Positions 8,124 to 16,048 of a DNA stretch of 64,000 bases are shown here, piece by piece. Both the position numbers and the translations under genes were made by a program. Positions within the stretch are counted from its first letter, which is position 1; the number at the start of each line of letters is the position of its first letter. The stretch is taken from positions 1 through 64,000 of the forward strand of contig NZ_SNAQ03000026.1 of NCBI RefSeq assembly GCF_004375085.3. Direction: 5' to 3'. The notes below the pieces were generated by a model. That model did not search any database and was not told the DNA's origin. It saw only the letters and a program-made list of their open reading frames with translations. Source of the stretch: Lewinella sp. W8 (lineage in GTDB: Bacteria; Bacteroidota; Bacteroidia; Chitinophagales; Saprospiraceae).

Positions 8124-8753
8124 ATGAAGGAAGTAGCCGAATTTTACCAGGACGCCCGCCGCCAGTGGGGAGAGGCAATCCACGATCAGTGGCCCGCCAT
8201 TGCGCGGGCCTACCGGGGACGCGCCTACCATAACCTGGAGCACCTCGGGGAAATGATTACCCACCTCACGGCCCTACCGGTTCTGCCGGCACCCGCGTCC
8301 TCGCCCACCTTTGCCATGGCCCTGATCTACCACGATTACGTGTACCGGCCCACCCGGGGAGATAATGAAGCGAAAAGTGCCGACGTTTGCGTGGAACACC
8401 TGAGCGGTACGGACGCTTCACTGACGCAGCTAGAGCGCTGCCGGCAACTCATCATGGCCACCAAAACCCATCGGCCCTCCGCCAGCGACGATGGCGGAGA
8501 AGCCCTCCTGATTGACTTGGACCTGGCGGTGCTGGCCCGTCCGGCCGAAAAATACCGGCAATACGTGAAGGCCATCCGCAAGGAATTCTGGATGTACCCC
8601 GGAGTGCTTTATCGCCCCGGCCGCATCAAGGTGCTGCGGCACTTCCTCGACCAGGAGCACATCTACAAAACGGCCTACGGCCGCGAACATTACGAAGCGC
8701 GAGCCAGAAAAAATCTGACCGCAGAACTCCGGCAACTCGGTGGGCAGCCCTAA
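8124..8753 (+). CDS. HD-superfamily metal-dependent hydrolase (COG4339-like)
   Basis: The protein has 209 residues from the first ATG; a TTG eight codons upstream is an alternative. The motif YHNLEHL (His36, His40) and the later YHDYVY (His70-Asp71) match the predicted HD-domain phosphohydrolases of the COG4339 type, whose substrate is unknown. It diverges from nadC. Its 3' end overlaps the stop of the convergent SCO1 gene by four bases. The function is inferred only from the metal-binding pattern. Confidence 0.75.
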   Translation: MKEVAEFYQDARRQWGEAIHDQWPAIARAYRGRAYHNLEHLGEMITHLTALPVLPAPASSPTFAMALIYHDYVYRPTRGDNEAKSADVCVEHLSGTDASLTQLERCRQLIMATKTHRPSASDDGGEALLIDLDLAVLARPAEKYRQYVKAIRKEFWMYPGVLYRPGRIKVLRHFLDQEHIYKTAYGREHYEARARKNLTAELRQLGGQP

Positions 8754-9445
8754 TTATTGAGCAGCAGTTCGATGTCCTTCATGAGGTAGTTTACTTCTTC
8801 CTCGTCCAGCCCGCTGGCGTAGGAGCGGACCCTACCCTCGCGGTCCAGGAGTACAATGTATCCACTGTGGTCAAATCCGCCGGGAGCCGCCGCGTTTTCC
8901 TCGGCGATGCTCATGTAGTCCTGATCCAGCTCGTAGATCTCGAACTTGTCGCCGTGCACAAAGCGCCAGCGATCCATGTCCGTAATGCCCAGTTTTTCGG
9001 CGTAGGCCTTCATCTTTTCCGGGGTATCCCGCTTAGGATCCACGGTGAAGGACAGCAGGGCAAAGTCGGGGTGATCGCCAAATTCCGCTTCCAGGCGTAA
9101 CATCTGGCCCTTCACTCTGGGGCAAATCGTCGGGCAGGAGGTAAAGAAAAATTCGGCGACGTGTACCTTCCCGAGGAAATCTTTATTCGATACCGGCCGG
9201 TTGAGTTGGTCCACGAACTGCCAGTCGCGCACGGGTTGCGGGTCAATTTTGCCCGTTACGGGGTCCGTCGGGTGATTTCCGGGGAAGCCCAGCGAGTCAA
9301 TCAGGTACTCTCCGGTTTTCGGATCCTGGGCGTGACGTCGGTAGTAGTCGGGCAAGTCGTTGTTTTCCCGGGTAATCAGGTTGCCGTCTCCGCACGCAAA
9401 AAACAGTACGGAAAAGCACAGGGGCAGGAATTGAGTAAGGCGCAT
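8750..9445 (-). CDS. SCO1/SenC-family copper/thioredoxin-fold lipoprotein
   Basis: The protein has 231 residues. A signal sequence ends at Cys18 (VLFFAC), which suggests lipidation. The thioredoxin-like domain carries the copper-binding pair in FTSCPTICPR (Cys104, Cys108) and a distal His in FDHSGY. SCO proteins deliver copper to the CuA site of cytochrome c oxidase or act as thiol reductants. No oxidase genes are adjacent. The first about 75 residues, with DPKTGEYLIDSLGFPGNHPTD, are a Bacteroidota-style extension before the fold. Confidence 0.9.
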   Translation of the reverse strand: MRLTQFLPLCFSVLFFACGDGNLITRENNDLPDYYRRHAQDPKTGEYLIDSLGFPGNHPTDPVTGKIDPQPVRDWQFVDQLNRPVSNKDFLGKVHVAEFFFTSCPTICPRVKGQMLRLEAEFGDHPDFALLSFTVDPKRDTPEKMKAYAEKLGITDMDRWRFVHGDKFEIYELDQDYMSIAEENAAAPGGFDHSGYIVLLDREGRVRSYASGLDEEEVNYLMKDIELLLNN

Positions 9446-9726: not shown

Positions 9727-12255
9727 CTACCGCCCGTGAATTTTCATTTTAATGAAGTCCTCGGCGGAACTTCCTTTGTCTTTACGATTTTTGATGAACT
9801 CACCCGTCACGCCATGGATGCGCAGCTTGACCAGTTCCTTGGCGGTAACGTTCTTCAGGCCCGCCTCCTGAATGGACTGGGCGAATCGGGGAGTCACGCC
9901 ATGAATTCTGGCGCTGATGAAGTCCTGCATCCCCATGTCGGTGTAGCCCAGTTTACGCAGACCGTCGATGAACTCACCGTCCACGCCGTGGATGGTCGCG
10001 CTCTTCACGTCTTCGAAATTGGTGACTTCCAATCCGGTGGCCATGATGGCGTCCAGGCGCCGCTGGCTCACCCCGTGGATTTTAGCTCCGACGATTTCGT
10101 CCACCGTCAGGCTGGTGAAGCCATTTTTGCGCAACATCTGCACGTATTCACCGTCCACGCCGTGGATGGTCATCTGCTTGGCCTGATCCAGGGTAAGGTC
10201 ACCGAGACCGGCGGACTTCATGTCCGCAATCCGTCGGGTGGATACGCCGTGGATGCGGGCGGCAACAACCTCCTGGGCACTCAGGTTTTTGTAGCCCAGC
10301 TCATTGAGCTCATTCACGTAATCAACGTCAACGCCGTGAATGGACATCTCCAGTACCTGATCAAAATTGAGTCCCGTAAACCCGGCCTTGGCCATGCCTT
10401 CCAGGTAGCCGGGCTTAACGCCGTGGATTTTTGCCTTCACGAGGTCGTTCAGGCTCAGTTTCCCGAATCCGGCGTCGGCCATGTAGTTGATGTAATCTTC
10501 GGTGACGCCGTGAATCTGTAATTCCACCAGCTTGTTGAAGGGTACCTGTCCGTAGCCCCGCTGACGCAGTGCGGCCACCCGGCCCTGAATGTCCTTCAGG
10601 TCCTTGAAGAAGATGGCGGCTTCGAGCAGCGCCTCCTTGTCACCACCGTAGCCCTGGTTGTCGAGGTAGGTCAGGTATTCCTGATCCACGTCGGCCATGA
10701 ACAGCAACATCATTTCCTGGTCGTCAAATCCGCGGTATCCGAGGCGGTCCAGTTCCCGGGAAAAGGTGGGACTGGCCGTCCAGGTGAAGGTGCCGAAACC
10801 TTCGTTGCCTTCAAAGGTGCCCTTCATGCTCATCTCACCGGCCGTACGCCGGATGGCAAAGGAACCCACTTCCCCTCCCCGGGGCAGCCCTCCGGAGATT
10901 TCGCTCATGGCGAAACAGCGTTGGCTGTTCCAGTTCCAGTTATTACCGTTGCTGCGGTTCTTGGACATGAACTGGATGCAAATCTCATTACCCTCGATTT
11001 CTGCCGTCCAACTGTTCAGGGCGGCGTTAACGTCGGTGATCCGGGGGCGTACGGGCATCGGTGCCGGAGCGGGTACCGGCACAACGTTAAGGGTTGGCGT
11101 CGGGGCAGGAGCCGGCACGGTGGGCACCCCGGGGCTGACGGGTACCGGAGGAGCCGGCGTAGCGTTCGGGGTCTCCGCCGGGGAAACGGTCGGAGCCGGA
11201 GCCACCGAGACCACGGGGGCGGGTGCCGGCACCGGAGCGGCCGTCGGCGCGGGCGGCACCGGTGGTGCCGGAGATTGGGCTACGGCGTTAAATTGCAACA
11301 TCGACAGCAGGAACAGGGGCAGAATGCTCAGGTATTTCCAACCCGAGCGTAGGGAGGATCTTTTAGTTTTCATCATACTGATTCTTTTTTCCAGCAGCTT
11401 TTGGTTGTAGCTGGTGGTTAATCCAAGGGGTAAATTGGGAACGGCCACCTTCAGGAGGCTCATCTGATAATCAATGGGGTCTTCTCCCTGACGGAGGACT
11501 TCCGCGTCCGTCAGAAATTCCAGGTTGTTTTCAATCGCGGCGCGGTACCACCAGGCAAAGGGGTTAAACCACTGTACCACGACCAGGGCTTCGGCAATCA
11601 ATAAATCAAGACTGTGTCGCTGGCGGACGTGCACGGCTTCGTGCTGGACGATCTGGTGAAAGGTATCCGGGTCATAGCGGTTGGGGTTGAGGAAAACCCG
11701 GTTCCAGAAGGAGTAGGGAGCGGCATCCTCATCGATCTCCACCAGGTGAAAACCTCCGGCGTCAAATCCGGGGTTGCGCAGCACCTTCACCAGGAGGTAC
11801 CCCGCCTGGATGAGAAAATGTGCCCCAAAAACCACGAACCCGGCCAGATACACCCACCAAACGATGTTCCACCAGTCGACAGTCCGGGTGATCCGCTCCG
11901 CCGCGATGGGCGAAATGCTCGCCTCTTCGGCTACTTCCACCCGCTGGGCGGGAGGCTCAGCCCGTGCGGGCGCGTCCGTCTGCCCGGGGTTTTCCGCCAT
12001 CGCCGCAGACTTTGCCAACAACTCGGCGGTAGAGGTTTCGGCGGGCGCCGTGGTCGTCTCCGCTTCCACCGAAACGATATGGTTCTTTAAGGACCAGGCC
12101 GCCGGCACCGTTACCAACGGCAGGGTGAGCGAGGCCGCCAGACAGGCCAGCAGGATGTAGCGATTGAGCTCAAAGTGGGTCTCCCGCCGCAGCAAAAGCC
12201 AGTAATAGGCAAAGGAGGCCGCCAGCAACAGACCGGCGTGAATTAAATACATCAT
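9727..12255 (-). CDS. BlaR1/MecR1-like M56 metallopeptidase with C-terminal IHGV repeats
   Basis: The protein has 842 residues. The N-terminal part holds membrane segments (residues 3-23, 33-50, 131-152) and the zinc site HEAVH (205-209) in a BlaR1/M56 peptidase domain. A further membrane segment near residue 310 is followed by a Pro/Ala/Val-rich linker (about 330-405). The usual penicillin-binding sensor domain is absent. From about residue 560 to the end there are ten copies of an IHG(V) motif spaced 29 residues apart (IHGVxxxYVxxLxxxGY pattern). The start overlaps the blaI-like stop by four bases. In known systems the M56 domain triggers cleavage of the partner repressor on signal; what this repeat region senses or binds is unknown. 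Confidence 0.9.
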   Translation of the reverse strand: MMYLIHAGLLLAASFAYYWLLLRRETHFELNRYILLACLAASLTLPLVTVPAAWSLKNHIVSVEAETTTAPAETSTAELLAKSAAMAENPGQTDAPARAEPPAQRVEVAEEASISPIAAERITRTVDWWNIVWWVYLAGFVVFGAHFLIQAGYLLVKVLRNPGFDAGGFHLVEIDEDAAPYSFWNRVFLNPNRYDPDTFHQIVQHEAVHVRQRHSLDLLIAEALVVVQWFNPFAWWYRAAIENNLEFLTDAEVLRQGEDPIDYQMSLLKVAVPNLPLGLTTSYNQKLLEKRISMMKTKRSSLRSGWKYLSILPLFLLSMLQFNAVAQSPAPPVPPAPTAAPVPAPAPVVSVAPAPTVSPAETPNATPAPPVPVSPGVPTVPAPAPTPTLNVVPVPAPAPMPVRPRITDVNAALNSWTAEIEGNEICIQFMSKNRSNGNNWNWNSQRCFAMSEISGGLPRGGEVGSFAIRRTAGEMSMKGTFEGNEGFGTFTWTASPTFSRELDRLGYRGFDDQEMMLLFMADVDQEYLTYLDNQGYGGDKEALLEAAIFFKDLKDIQGRVAALRQRGYGQVPFNKLVELQIHGVTEDYINYMADAGFGKLSLNDLVKAKIHGVKPGYLEGMAKAGFTGLNFDQVLEMSIHGVDVDYVNELNELGYKNLSAQEVVAARIHGVSTRRIADMKSAGLGDLTLDQAKQMTIHGVDGEYVQMLRKNGFTSLTVDEIVGAKIHGVSQRRLDAIMATGLEVTNFEDVKSATIHGVDGEFIDGLRKLGYTDMGMQDFISARIHGVTPRFAQSIQEAGLKNVTAKELVKLRIHGVTGEFIKNRKDKGSSAEDFIKMKIHGR

Positions 12256-12614
12256 TTCTCCTGACTTTTGATCATTTTGAGGATGCGTTCCAGATCCTGA
12301 GCGTCCAGTTTTTGCTCCTTGGCAAAGTAGTTGACTAGCTTCATCGGGGAATCGTCGAAAAAGCCGCGCACCACGTCGTCCACCACTTCTTCCTGATAGT
12401 CTTCCTTACTCACCACGGCGAAATAGCGGTAGGCGTTACCCAGCTTTTCGTGGTCGACGAAACCCTTATCCTCTAGCAGCTTTACCATCGTGGATACGGA
12501 GTTGTAATGGGGCTTTGGGTCGGGTAATTGCTCGACAATCTCCTTGATGAAAGCCTTCTCCAGATGCCAGATGGCCTGCATGATCTGGGCTTCTCTTTTT
12601 GCGAGTTTTCGCAT
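12252..12614 (-). CDS. BlaI/MecI-family transcriptional repressor
   Basis: The protein has 120 residues with the winged-helix Penicillinase_R fold. KREAQIMQAIWHLEKAFIKEIVEQL is helix-turn-helix entry, and YNSVSTMVKLLEDKGFVDHE is the recognition helix and wing. The C-terminal dimerisation part includes DVVRGFFDDSPMKLVNYF. It is translationally coupled to the M56 sensor gene. Three dyads of TACTAAT..ATTAGTA type lie directly upstream, so self-regulation is expected. Release by proteolysis through the partner is known for the family, not shown here. Confidence 0.93.
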   Translation of the reverse strand: MRKLAKREAQIMQAIWHLEKAFIKEIVEQLPDPKPHYNSVSTMVKLLEDKGFVDHEKLGNAYRYFAVVSKEDYQEEVVDDVVRGFFDDSPMKLVNYFAKEQKLDAQDLERILKMIKSQEK

Positions 12615-12617
12615 AAC

Positions 12618-12678
12618 TACTAATTGATTAGTACAAAGGTAGTCCTAATGAATTAGTATTGCAACTAATCGATTAGTA
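12618..12678 (-). promoter_or_regulatory. Promoter with three BlaI-type operators
   Basis: The minus strand has a -33 TTG (12664-12662) and a -7 TACCTTTG (12641-12634) spaced 20 bases apart. Three 16-bp dyads overlay it: 12618-12633 (TACTAATTGATTAGTA), 12643-12658 (a weaker TCCTAATGAATTAGTA) and 12663-12678 (AACTAATCGATTAGTA). Their centres are 25 and 20 bases apart. They cover the -33, the spacer and the region after the -7. TACTA/TAGTA half-sites are characteristic of BlaI/MecI operators. Confidence 0.85.
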
Positions 12679-12708: not shown

Positions 12709-14052
12709 CTAGAAGATCACCCGCAACCGCGTCCAACCGTCTTCCTCGGTCGCCAGCTGGTAAGTAGCTTCGTGCCCCTCTAGGATGTCTCGGGTGAGGG
12801 TCAGGCCCACTCCCTGCCCCGTGGGCTTGGTGCTGAAGAAGGGCGTAAAGACCTGATCCGCCACCTCCGCGGGGATCCCGGCTCCGTTGTCCGCAATGAC
12901 GAAGCCGGAGGGGTAACTGGAAGAAGTGATTTTGATGAAGCCTCCCCGCCCGATACTCTCCCGGGCGTTGGTCAGGGCATTGACGACCACCTGTTCGATC
13001 TGGGCGGCGTCGGCCTCAATGAAGGTAGGCTCGGCGGAGAGTTTATAGGTCAATTCGATGTCGGACTCCCGAAGGACCGATTCCATCACCTCCCCCGTGC
13101 GGTGCAGAAGTTCGTTCAGGTCGATCCGCTTTTTATCCGGTGCTGGCAAGCGCACCACCCGGGCGAATTTGCGCATGAAGCTGGTCATGTTCTCGGCCCG
13201 GTTGATGACGACGGGTAAGAATTCTTCGGAGAGTTCCGTCAAATCCTGGGGCGTATCCCGCGCCGTATCCAACAGGGTGCGCAGCACGGAGGTAATCGCC
13301 GCGTTGGAATTATTGACCTCGTGGGCCATCATCCGGATCACCTTGCCGTAGGCCTCCCGTTCCGCCGCCAGGATGTCGGTGGTGACGTCCTGAACGATCA
13401 GAAATCCGCGCTCAAACCCGCGGTCAATAAAGGAAGAATACTCGACGTGATAGCGGCGGTTGCCGGGGCCGATGAAGACCCGCGTCAGGTTATCGCGGGG
13501 GGGCTGAACCGTGGTACCGGTGGGAGGAATTTCCTGACTTTCTGGAATATTCGTTTGGGGGGCACCGGTGTGCAGGTGCAGTGCGGGCTCGAGGACAGCC
13601 GTGCGAAAATCCAGCTGCTTGCACTGGTTTTCCATCCAAGCGTTCATGGAGCTGACCCGCCCCTCAAAGTCCAGAATGACCACCCCCACTTCGGCCGCGG
13701 CCAGCAGCTGGTCCAGAAATTCCTCCTGCTGCCGACTGCTCACCCGTTCGGCCCGTAGTTGGTCGATCATCCGGTTGTATACATTTACCAACCGGTCCAT
13801 TTCGGCGCTTCCCGTTGGGGAGAGCTTGACGGTGAAGTCCTGGTCCGCCATGGCCTGTGCCCCCCGGCTCAGCAGGGCCACGGGAGCGATGATGGACTTG
13901 TACAACTTCATGGCCAGGTAGGCCGAGAAAAAGACGACGATCTCGACCAGCAGAAAGGAAAATCCGGTGGTGTCCAGGGCCATACTGACCGCAACGGCCA
14001 GGGCAACGTGAAGCACCAGAAGGTAAATGATATACTTAGCCGCGGAGGTCAT
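12709..14052 (-). CDS. Sensor histidine kinase (HAMP-PAS, NtrB/NtrY-like)
   Basis: The protein has 447 residues from ATG; a TTG eleven codons upstream is less likely. Two membrane segments lie near residues 5-25 and 32-50, with almost no periplasmic loop between them. They are followed by a HAMP-like region, a PAS domain (about 112-225) and the kinase core. The phospho-acceptor is His244 in MMAHEVNN. ATP-binding motifs include NALTNARESI, VIADNGAGIP and GVGLTLTRDIL. It very probably phosphorylates the sigma-54 regulator at 14690-16048, from which it is separated only by hsp20. The short loop suggests sensing in or near the membrane. Confidence 0.9.
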   Translation of the reverse strand: MTSAAKYIIYLLVLHVALAVAVSMALDTTGFSFLLVEIVVFFSAYLAMKLYKSIIAPVALLSRGAQAMADQDFTVKLSPTGSAEMDRLVNVYNRMIDQLRAERVSSRQQEEFLDQLLAAAEVGVVILDFEGRVSSMNAWMENQCKQLDFRTAVLEPALHLHTGAPQTNIPESQEIPPTGTTVQPPRDNLTRVFIGPGNRRYHVEYSSFIDRGFERGFLIVQDVTTDILAAEREAYGKVIRMMAHEVNNSNAAITSVLRTLLDTARDTPQDLTELSEEFLPVVINRAENMTSFMRKFARVVRLPAPDKKRIDLNELLHRTGEVMESVLRESDIELTYKLSAEPTFIEADAAQIEQVVVNALTNARESIGRGGFIKITSSSYPSGFVIADNGAGIPAEVADQVFTPFFSTKPTGQGVGLTLTRDILEGHEATYQLATEEDGWTRLRVIF

Positions 14053-14084
14053 TACTATTCTCTTTTCAGGATCAGGCCTCCGCA

Positions 14085-14117
14085 AGGTACGATTCCGTTC
14101 GTGGCGGAATCGTACCT
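14085..14117. other. Perfect hairpin between hsp20 and the kinase
   Basis: Arms 14085-14097 and 14105-14117 are exact inverted copies (13 bp, 7-base loop). No T run follows on either strand, so it may be a transcript-processing or attenuating hairpin rather than a terminator. Confidence 0.6.
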
Positions 14118-14132
14118 GTACTCAGCAACCGA

Positions 14133-14576
14133 TCATTCTACGGTTACGCGTTTAACGGGCTTTTCTTCCTCCGGGGGAAGGTCCCGAATGCTTAGGGTCA
14201 GCAGGCCGTTGGCAAACTTAGCCTTGATCTCTTCCCGATCAGCTCCCGGCTGCAGCAAGAACCGCTTCTCAACGGTCTCCATCCGGAATTGCTGGACGAT
14301 GTATTCGCCTTCGGACCGCTCCTCTTCCTGTTTCTTAGCGCTGACGATCAGGGTGTCGTTACGAACTTCCACCGTGATGTCCTCGCGGGAAAAACCCGGA
14401 AGTGCGATGTCAAAGGAAAGCAGGCCCTCGCTTTTGCGCACGTTTACGGGGGCATCGTCGGTATCGTGATAAAGATCAAAGACGGACTTACCCAAAAAGT
14501 GGCGGCTATGGGCATCGGGGTTCATCATCGGAAGACGACGATCCTCGCGGTAGGTTTTGATATCTGGGAATGCCAT
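14133..14576 (-). CDS. Small heat-shock protein, Hsp20/alpha-crystallin family
   Basis: The protein has 147 residues. The alpha-crystallin domain covers about residues 45-140. It has LLSFDIALPGFSREDITVEV, EYIVQQFRMETVEKRFLLQPG and the ANGLLTLSI segment, and ends with a PVKRVTVE tail. It is an ATP-independent holdase chaperone in the cytoplasm. It lies between the response regulator and the histidine kinase in the same direction, an unusual place that suggests shared control with the two-component system. Confidence 0.95.
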   Translation of the reverse strand: MAFPDIKTYREDRRLPMMNPDAHSRHFLGKSVFDLYHDTDDAPVNVRKSEGLLSFDIALPGFSREDITVEVRNDTLIVSAKKQEEERSEGEYIVQQFRMETVEKRFLLQPGADREEIKAKFANGLLTLSIRDLPPEEEKPVKRVTVE

Positions 14577-14689
14577 GGTTCGATGGTTTTGGCTAATGCA
14601 TTATTGCACCCGGAACCTACACCCTACCCTGCGCTATCGCGCTGATTTTCGTCACGTCAAAAGATGATTTCCACTACTGGACGGCAAGC

Positions 14690-16048
14690 TCAAAGGTTGA
14701 ATTTTTCAATTCTCCGGTAGAGGGCCGCCCGGGTCAGTCCGAGTTCACGCGCCGTTGCGGTGATCTCCCGGTCGTTTCGTTCCAGCGCGTTTTTGATCAT
14801 GCGCACTTCCATTTCTTCGAGCGTCATATCTCCGGAAAAAATGCTGTTCGGTTGCTTCTTGTTCCGCGACTGCATTTCCAAATCCTCTACCTGGATAACG
14901 GAGGTCGGTGCCAGGATGGTGACCCGCTCGATCAGGTTCTGGAGTTGGCGGACGTTTCCGGAGAAGGATTGCCGCTTCAACCAATCCTGAGCCGCGTTGC
15001 TGAAGGCCATTTCGGGTCGGTCGTAGCGCTTGCGGGCGCTGATCAGAAAGTGTTCCGCCAGCATCACGATGTCGGAGGGCCGCTCCCGCAGGGGCGGCAG
15101 GTGCAGGTGGATCAGGTTGATCCGGTAAAGCAAATCCTCCCGGAAGGTTCCGGCGGCGACCATCGAGTGAAGGTCCCGGCTGGTGGCACTCAGGATTCGC
15201 ACGTCGGTCGGCCGGGGTTTGCTTTCTCCCAGGCGCTCGTACTGTCGTTCCTGGAGTACCCGGAGTAGTTTGACCTGGGCGGCAGCGTCCAGGTCGCCGA
15301 TCTCATCCAGGAACAGGGTGCCTCCCTCGGCCAGCTCAAAGCGGCCGGCCCGGTCGCTGCGGGCGTCGGTGAAGGCACCCGCCTTGTGCCCGAAGAGTTC
15401 GCTTTCGAAGAGTCCGGCGGGTACTCCGCCGAGGTTGACGGCCACGAAGGGGCCACCCCGTCGCTGGGAGCTTTGGTGAATGGCTTCGGCCACCAGTTCC
15501 TTGCCCGTACCGCTTTCTCCGGTGATGAGCACGGAAGCCTGGGTGGCCGCCACCCGCCGGGCCTGATCCAGGACATCCAGCAGGGCCGGAGATTGACCGA
15601 TGATGCCTTCGAAAGGATCCTTGGCCTCACCCGAGCTTCCGGCACCTGCGGCCACGCCACCAAACGAAAAGGGAATCTTGTCAATGAGCATGCCAATGGC
15701 GTTGAGCAACTCATTATTGTCCCAGGGTTTAGCGATGAAGTCCCGGGCACCGGCCTTCATGCCTTCCACCGCCAACTGCACCGTGGCCCAGCCCGTCATC
15801 TGGATGACGGCGAGGTCCGGATAATTTGCCAGGATGGCCCGGAGCAGTTTCATCCCGTCTTTCCCGCTGGTATCAATGGTGAAGTTCATGTCCAGGAGCA
15901 CCAGGAGGGGCTTAAAGTCCTGGATGGTCTCCATGACGTCCGCGGGGTGATGGACGCTCCGGGGGCGGTAGCCGGCCCGCCGCAAGATCAATTCCAGACT
16001 CTTGCAAACGGTACGGTCGTCGTCGATGATGAGGATGGGATGGCTCAC
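14690..16048 (-). CDS. Sigma-54-dependent response regulator (NtrC family)
   Basis: The protein has 452 residues. A receiver domain with phospho-acceptor Asp53 (LLDMNF) is followed by an AAA+ domain with Walker A GESGTGKE and Walker B GGTLFLDEIGDL. A Fis-type HTH (TATARELGLTRAALYRRIEKF) is at the C-terminus. The sigma-54 contact loop reads GAFTDA in place of the textbook GAFTGA. Such proteins open sigma-54 promoters after phosphorylation. The ABC exporter operon lies just upstream in the same direction, and a sigma-54-like promoter precedes its first gene at 22787-22804, so that is the likely target. Confidence 0.95.
   Translation of the reverse strand: MSHPILIIDDDRTVCKSLELILRRAGYRPRSVHHPADVMETIQDFKPLLVLLDMNFTIDTSGKDGMKLLRAILANYPDLAVIQMTGWATVQLAVEGMKAGARDFIAKPWDNNELLNAIGMLIDKIPFSFGGVAAGAGSSGEAKDPFEGIIGQSPALLDVLDQARRVAATQASVLITGESGTGKELVAEAIHQSSQRRGGPFVAVNLGGVPAGLFESELFGHKAGAFTDARSDRAGRFELAEGGTLFLDEIGDLDAAAQVKLLRVLQERQYERLGESKPRPTDVRILSATSRDLHSMVAAGTFREDLLYRINLIHLHLPPLRERPSDIVMLAEHFLISARKRYDRPEMAFSNAAQDWLKRQSFSGNVRQLQNLIERVTILAPTSVIQVEDLEMQSRNKKQPNSIFSGDMTLEEMEVRMIKNALERNDREITATARELGLTRAALYRRIEKFNL

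What the first reader, a model, noticed from the sequence alone, without database searches (positions are those of the whole stretch)
9727..12255. BlaR-type M56 sensor with ten 29-residue IHGV repeats in place of a beta-lactam-binding domain
Seen: HEAVH at residues 205-209, a Pro/Ala/Val linker, then ten IHG(V) motifs at 29-residue period filling the last third. Known: BlaR1/MecR1 proteins end in a penicillin-binding domain. Inference: the repeats form a solenoid that senses or binds something else, so the pair would be a protease-triggered switch with a new input.
Basis: partly seen in the sequence, partly recalled or inferred. Interest (0 to 1): 0.8.

Follow-up and report, generated by a model that had tools for sequence, protein, structure and literature searches.

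The report
Self-regulating membrane protease with periplasmic solenoid
This gene pair is a relative of the bacterial antibiotic-sensing switch BlaI/BlaR1 in which the antibiotic-binding part is replaced by a small beta domain plus a long helical-repeat rod; the same module occurs in several bacterial phyla, usually as a separate secreted protein controlled by the same repressor, so the rod appears to be a product of the switch as well as, possibly, its sensor.

Summary
A BlaI-like repressor (12252-12614, -) is followed by an 842-aa M56 protein whose tail has ten IHG motifs (nine IHGV), period 29. 414-498, two conserved Cys) before the repeats. AlphaFold2 gives a confident 6-strand domain plus two-helix solenoid (pLDDT 93). 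No Pfam or NCBIfam family covers the tail.

The beta+solenoid unit also occurs as a separate secreted protein in Myxococcota, Acidobacteriota, Alphaproteobacteria and other Bacteroidota, often directly downstream of blaI-M56 (17 of 20 myxobacterial loci). The M56 tree needs at least 5 fused/split changes. Putative BlaI operators precede the operon: three ACTAATNNATTAGT sites in Neolewinella, and a tandem TACGAANNNNTTCGT pair around TTGACA in myxobacteria. In five myxobacterial genomes where the secreted gene lies elsewhere, the same tandem operator sits 35-47 bp before its start codon. So the unit is a predicted output of the circuit, not only a new sensor.

TAL-effector resemblance is a fold analogy; the sequence match failed controls. 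The stimulus is unknown; envelope stress is the best guess. I found no prior description in the papers searched. New variant of the BlaI/BlaR1 kind.

The parts
12252..12614 (-). blaI-like repressor gene (120 aa, Penicillinase_R family)
   Evidence: Pfam PF03965 E 2.6e-30
9727..12255 (-). M56 membrane protease with beta + IHGV-solenoid tail (842 aa)
   Evidence: Pfam PF05569 E 4.1e-11 at residues 183-294; ORF
11629..11643 (-). zinc-binding HEAVH motif, residues 205-209
   Evidence: HExxH and ExxxD in all 19 M56-containing orthologues scanned
11506..11520 (-). ExxxD (EFLTD, residues 246-250), presumed third zinc ligand
   Evidence: conserved in all 19; role from knowledge of M56
11275..11340 (-). 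last hydrophobic segment, residues 306-327, ending in AVA-Q (signal-peptidase-like motif)
   Evidence: AxA in most Neolewinella orthologues; cleavage untested
11044..11274 (-). Pro/Ala/Val-rich linker, residues 328-404
   Evidence: sequence
10762..11016 (-). beta domain, residues 414-498, six predicted strands, Cys426 and Cys447
   Evidence: AF2 pLDDT mostly about 90 or more, one loop 62; both Cys invariant in A1
9730..10761 (-). alpha solenoid, residues 499-842, two 9-residue helices per 29-aa repeat; IHG motifs 581-841
12619..12632 (.). putative BlaI operator ACTAATTGATTAGT
   Evidence: exact palindrome; present in seven Neolewinella/Lewinella species
12644..12657 (.). putative BlaI operator, one mismatch
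12664..12677 (.). putative BlaI operator ACTAATCGATTAGT

Best explanation
It is an autoregulated, BlaI/BlaR1-like signalling operon. BlaI binds three palindromes in front of its own operon and keeps it low. The M56 protein sits in the inner membrane with its zinc site facing the cytoplasm and its beta + IHGV solenoid in the periplasm, on a Pro-rich linker. An envelope signal acting on the tail activates the protease, BlaI is cut, and the operon is derepressed. The main gene product raised is the beta-solenoid module itself, here as the tail of the protease and elsewhere as a free secreted protein. The module is therefore both a predicted output and the likely sensing or feedback part. Shown by computation: operon, active-site motifs, fold prediction, operators, fused/split recurrence, and operator sites at moved partner genes. 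Inferred: BlaI binding and cleavage, periplasmic sensing, the nature of the signal, and what the solenoid binds.
For: BlaI and M56 matches. HExxH and ExxxD in 19/19 M56-containing orthologues. Tail predicted at pLDDT 93. Stand-alone relatives carry signal peptides and lie just downstream of blaI-M56 in all nine non-fused loci of the first genome scan, in 17/20 myxobacterial loci and in two further Bacteroidota loci. Split M56 proteins have their own repeat tail but no beta domain; fused ones have the beta domain and, with one exception, no partner. At least 5 fused/split changes on the M56 tree. Operators: three palindromes conserved in seven Neolewinella/Lewinella species, whose exact matches in the 6.2-Mb genome lie only at this operon and one paralogous blaI-M56 operon. 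Myxobacterial composite operator in 61/193 genomes, reversed control zero in every genome. It lies 35-47 bp upstream of the start codon of the moved partner gene in five genomes.
Against: No experiment. No ligand or stimulus identified. In Acidobacteriota 13 of 20 beta-repeat loci had no blaI-M56 found beside them, three of them on short contigs; two such genes lie near ECF sigma/anti-sigma genes, so the module is not exclusive to this circuit. The AVA-Q site after the last hydrophobic segment could allow the tail to be released, which would argue against direct sensing. Operator-gene links come from pattern matches; regulation is not measured.
Confidence: 0.6

Rival explanations
1. The tail is purely cargo/output: M56-BlaI sense something through the membrane part or the TM2-TM3 loop, and the beta-solenoid is a protective or scaffolding periplasmic protein, released after the AVA-Q site.
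For: Stand-alone secreted versions under the same operator, even when the gene has moved; AVA-Q motif; no other target clustered with these operators in the window genome.
Against: Split M56 proteins still keep their own periplasmic repeat tail; fusions to M56 recur, which favours physical coupling.
Confidence: 0.25
2. Pure new-input sensor: the solenoid only binds a ligand and controls other target genes.
For: Same position as the BlaR1 sensor domain; a few myxobacterial genomes have extra operators before a beta-lactamase-family hydrolase or a DUF5916 protein.
Against: In most genomes the operator is found only at the operon and/or at the beta-solenoid gene.
Confidence: 0.12
3. The repeats are TAL-effector-related nucleic-acid-binding repeats.
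For: Profile match E 5.6e-11 to TAL effectors; the best natural fold matches are TAL effector and mTERF chains.
Against: Profiles from other repeats of this family do not find TAL effectors; one finds DotG/IcmE repeats equally well. Single stretches are weak. The five-repeat model has Z about 6 and no Foldseek match under 0.001. The tail is predicted to be outside the cytoplasm.
Confidence: 0.03

Closest known systems
BlaI/BlaR1 and MecI/MecR1 (Staphylococcus, Bacillus)
   Same: BlaI-family repressor, M56 protease with HExxH, extracytoplasmic C-terminal domain, palindromic operators at the own promoter.
   Different: No penicillin-binding/class-D-like domain detected; beta + solenoid tail instead; operators mostly only at the operon and the solenoid gene; no beta-lactamase target found in the window genome.
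M56 proteins with other tails, e.g. the paralogue in the same genome (contig C2) with a LiaG/DUF4097-like tail
   Same: Same BlaI type, same triple operator, same membrane part.
   Different: Different periplasmic tail.
TAL effector / BurrH and mTERF solenoids
   Same: Two-helix superhelical repeats; HG-V/L-TP-like motif in part.
   Different: 29-aa rather than 33-35-aa repeats, extracytoplasmic, no reproducible sequence relation.

Membership tests
Peptidase M56 (BlaR1 type) | M56 profile match with HExxH | tested here: met
   PF05569 43 bits against cut-off 31; HEAVH 205-209; ExxxD conserved
BlaR1/MecR1 beta-lactam sensors | C-terminal penicillin-binding / class-D-like sensor domain | tested here: not met
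   No Pfam match after residue 294; NCBIfam blaR1_generic matches only 199-268 at 12 bits, cut-off 400; tail predicted as beta + solenoid
BlaI/MecI repressors | Penicillinase_R winged helix | tested here: met
   PF03965 E 2.6e-30
BlaI/MecI repressors | Palindromic operators at the own promoter | tested here: met
   Three conserved palindromes; binding not tested
BlaI/BlaR1 system | Repressor cleaved by the M56 protease on stimulus | not testable with these tools
   Needs experiment
TAL-effector-like repeats | Reproducible sequence relation to TALE repeats | tested here: inconclusive
   positive; negative or equally good to unrelated repeats; Pfam TAL model not among the families listed for A3 members
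TAL-effector-like repeats | TALE/mTERF-type solenoid fold | tested here: inconclusive
   Best Z 6.2, rmsd 5.7 over 138 residues; such values may mean only a common arrangement

The most novel reading that the evidence does not exclude
A self-titrating envelope circuit: the secreted beta-solenoid protein binds the repeat tail of the M56 protease and holds it off (negative feedback). When it is drawn away to damaged envelope, the protease cuts BlaI and more solenoid protein is made. In Neolewinella the two parts have fused.
Probability: 0.25. Interest if true: 0.75.

Novelty: new variant of a known kind. Interest (0 to 1): 0.6.

Why it matters
BlaI/M56 systems are known mainly from beta-lactam resistance, and what other M56 tails do is largely unknown. 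Here a recurrent three-part arrangement (repressor, protease, beta-solenoid) spans at least four phyla, with predicted operators, a defined candidate output and natural fused and split forms. That makes the input and coupling testable. The tail belongs to a widespread repeat family with no model in Pfam or NCBIfam.

Tried and rejected
TAL-effector homology: suggested, rejected as shown homology after controls; TAL sequences were not fetched. Any known domain for the tail: none. Downstream SCO1-like gene as an operon member: shared by only some Neolewinella species. A fixed fourth gene downstream in myxobacteria: none found. The contig-C22 operator-like site in the window genome lies inside or beside rpsL and is taken as chance. 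Foldseek hit to the designed nanocage 8v2d: a designed protein, not followed. Paper searches gave no description of this module. Alphaproteobacteria sample: only the starting genome of 289 matched at E 1e-30. A reversed-repeat alignment was built as a further control but not searched.

Full report
The finding is real. The minus-strand ORF 9727-12255 encodes an 842-residue protein that starts where a 120-residue BlaI-family repressor (12252-12614) ends. Pfam assigns only the M56 domain (residues 183-294) and Penicillinase_R to the repressor; nothing covers the tail, and the BlaR1 NCBIfam model reaches only the protease part. Ten IHG motifs are present, nine of them IHGV, spaced 29 residues (last step 26); lag-29 identity is far above shuffles (the test sequence also held the appended BlaI), and lag 58 is higher still, so repeats alternate in type. 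HEAVH (205-209) and a downstream ExxxD occur in all 19 M56-containing orthologues scanned. Hydropathy and charge suggest the BlaR1-like topology with the tail outside; the only cysteines besides one in TM2 are two invariant ones in the tail, consistent with a periplasmic disulfide (inference).

AlphaFold2 on the tail with 17 relatives gives mean pLDDT 93, six strands and then a regular two-helix solenoid. Foldseek and VIA-align place it loosely with TAL-effector and mTERF solenoids. A five-repeat model alone gives Z about 6 and no Foldseek match below 0.001. A profile search matched TAL-effector sequences at 5.6e-11, but three other profiles of the same repeat family did not, and one matched DotG/IcmE repeats just as well. 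I treat this as a fold analogy with a short shared motif. DNA binding is unlikely for a periplasmic domain.

The window is from a Neolewinella-like genome: the nearest named relatives are Neolewinella and Lewinella. The tail is conserved in most sampled genomes of the genus and in a few other genera of the family. A scan of 85,000 species genomes with the repeat profile gave 16 loci in Bacteroidota, Myxococcota, Acidobacteriota and Alphaproteobacteria (one labelled Comamonas looks myxobacterial). Outside the fused forms the beta-repeat unit is a separate protein with a signal peptide, and in all nine such loci it is encoded immediately downstream of blaI and an M56 gene. In the seven of these genomes that were searched whole, the only other matches are the repeat tails of the adjacent M56 proteins. 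In sampled genomes the profile hit 47/146 Myxococcota, 38/247 Acidobacteriota and 46/296 Bacteroidota at differing thresholds; many of the Bacteroidota hits are a repeat-only membrane protein in another family.

Linkage was checked on fetched regions. Of 20 myxobacterial loci, 17 have the order blaI, M56 with repeat tail, beta-repeat protein. Of 20 acidobacterial loci, six have a blaI-M56 pair with the beta-repeat unit fused or adjacent, one has a pair nearby on the other strand, and 13 have none found, three of these on short contigs. Some of the remainder lie near ECF sigma/anti-sigma genes or a TPR-like gene. Fused and split forms are nearly exclusive: M56 proteins with a partner lack the beta domain, fused ones have it and lack a partner, with one locus having both. 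A tree of the M56 domain needs at least 5 fused/split changes (quick method, several long branches). Repeated fusion is good evidence that the two proteins work together.

Regulation was inferred from DNA. Upstream of blaI in seven Neolewinella/Lewinella species lie three copies of ACTAATNNATTAGT. In the whole 6.18-Mb genome the exact matches occur only here and at one paralogous blaI-M56 operon, each with a cluster of three sites at up to one mismatch; scattered one-mismatch sites are within chance. That paralogue has a LiaG/DUF4097-like tail instead. In 14 myxobacteria two different palindromes flank a TTGACA box. The composite pattern occurs in 61 of 193 Myxococcota genomes with no reversed-control hit in any. 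Most genomes have it only once; wherever the position was compared with the profile hits it lies at this type of operon. In five genomes where the beta-repeat gene is elsewhere on the chromosome (G719, G747, G751, G691, G697), a second copy lies 35-47 bp before its start codon. A sixth moved copy (G626) lies in a genome where the pattern is not found at all. A few genomes have the operator before a PF00144 beta-lactamase-family secreted protein (G748, G1055) or before a DUF5916/CBM9 protein (G615, and a near-identical protein in G635; G722 also has an extra site, target not scanned). These targets look envelope-directed.

The best reading is therefore an autoregulated BlaI/M56 circuit whose principal predicted output is the beta-solenoid module, which in this window is the protease's own tail. 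Sensing by the tail, BlaI cleavage and the signal remain inference. The AVA-Q motif after the last hydrophobic segment leaves open that the tail is released. The BlaR1 mechanism used as the model is that summarised in PMC7593790. No earlier description of this module was found in the papers searched, but that library omits most subscription journals. I rate it a new variant of a known kind, interest 0.6.

Noticed in passing
L191 (window genome, contig C2, about 155.7-157.9 kb): Second blaI-M56 operon with the same three-operator array and a LiaG/DUF4097-like tail; its BlaI shares most of the recognition-helix region, so the two operons may cross-regulate.
   Followed up: partly
window genome contig C77:17334-17349: Variant palindrome TACGAATTGATTCGTA near another M56 gene, probably an operator of different specificity.
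   Followed up: no
L068, L070, L073, L078 and similar (another family of the same phylum): About 240-300-aa single-TM proteins with the same class of 29-aa repeats (no IHG), several next to a CheY-like response regulator and an outer-membrane-barrel-like protein.
   Followed up: partly
L125 and L132 (Acidobacteriota): Secreted beta-repeat proteins near ECF sigma and anti-sigma genes, suggesting the module serves other envelope signalling systems.
   Followed up: partly
L216, L252: BlaI-type tandem operator upstream of a secreted PF00144 beta-lactamase-family protein in two myxobacteria.
   Followed up: partly
12709-16048: Histidine kinase, Hsp20 and NtrC-type response regulator genes upstream of blaI; the kinase and regulator are conserved next to the operon in several Neolewinella species.
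   Followed up: no
8750-9445: SCO1/SenC-like gene downstream on the same strand; shared in only two of the six relatives examined.
   Followed up: partly
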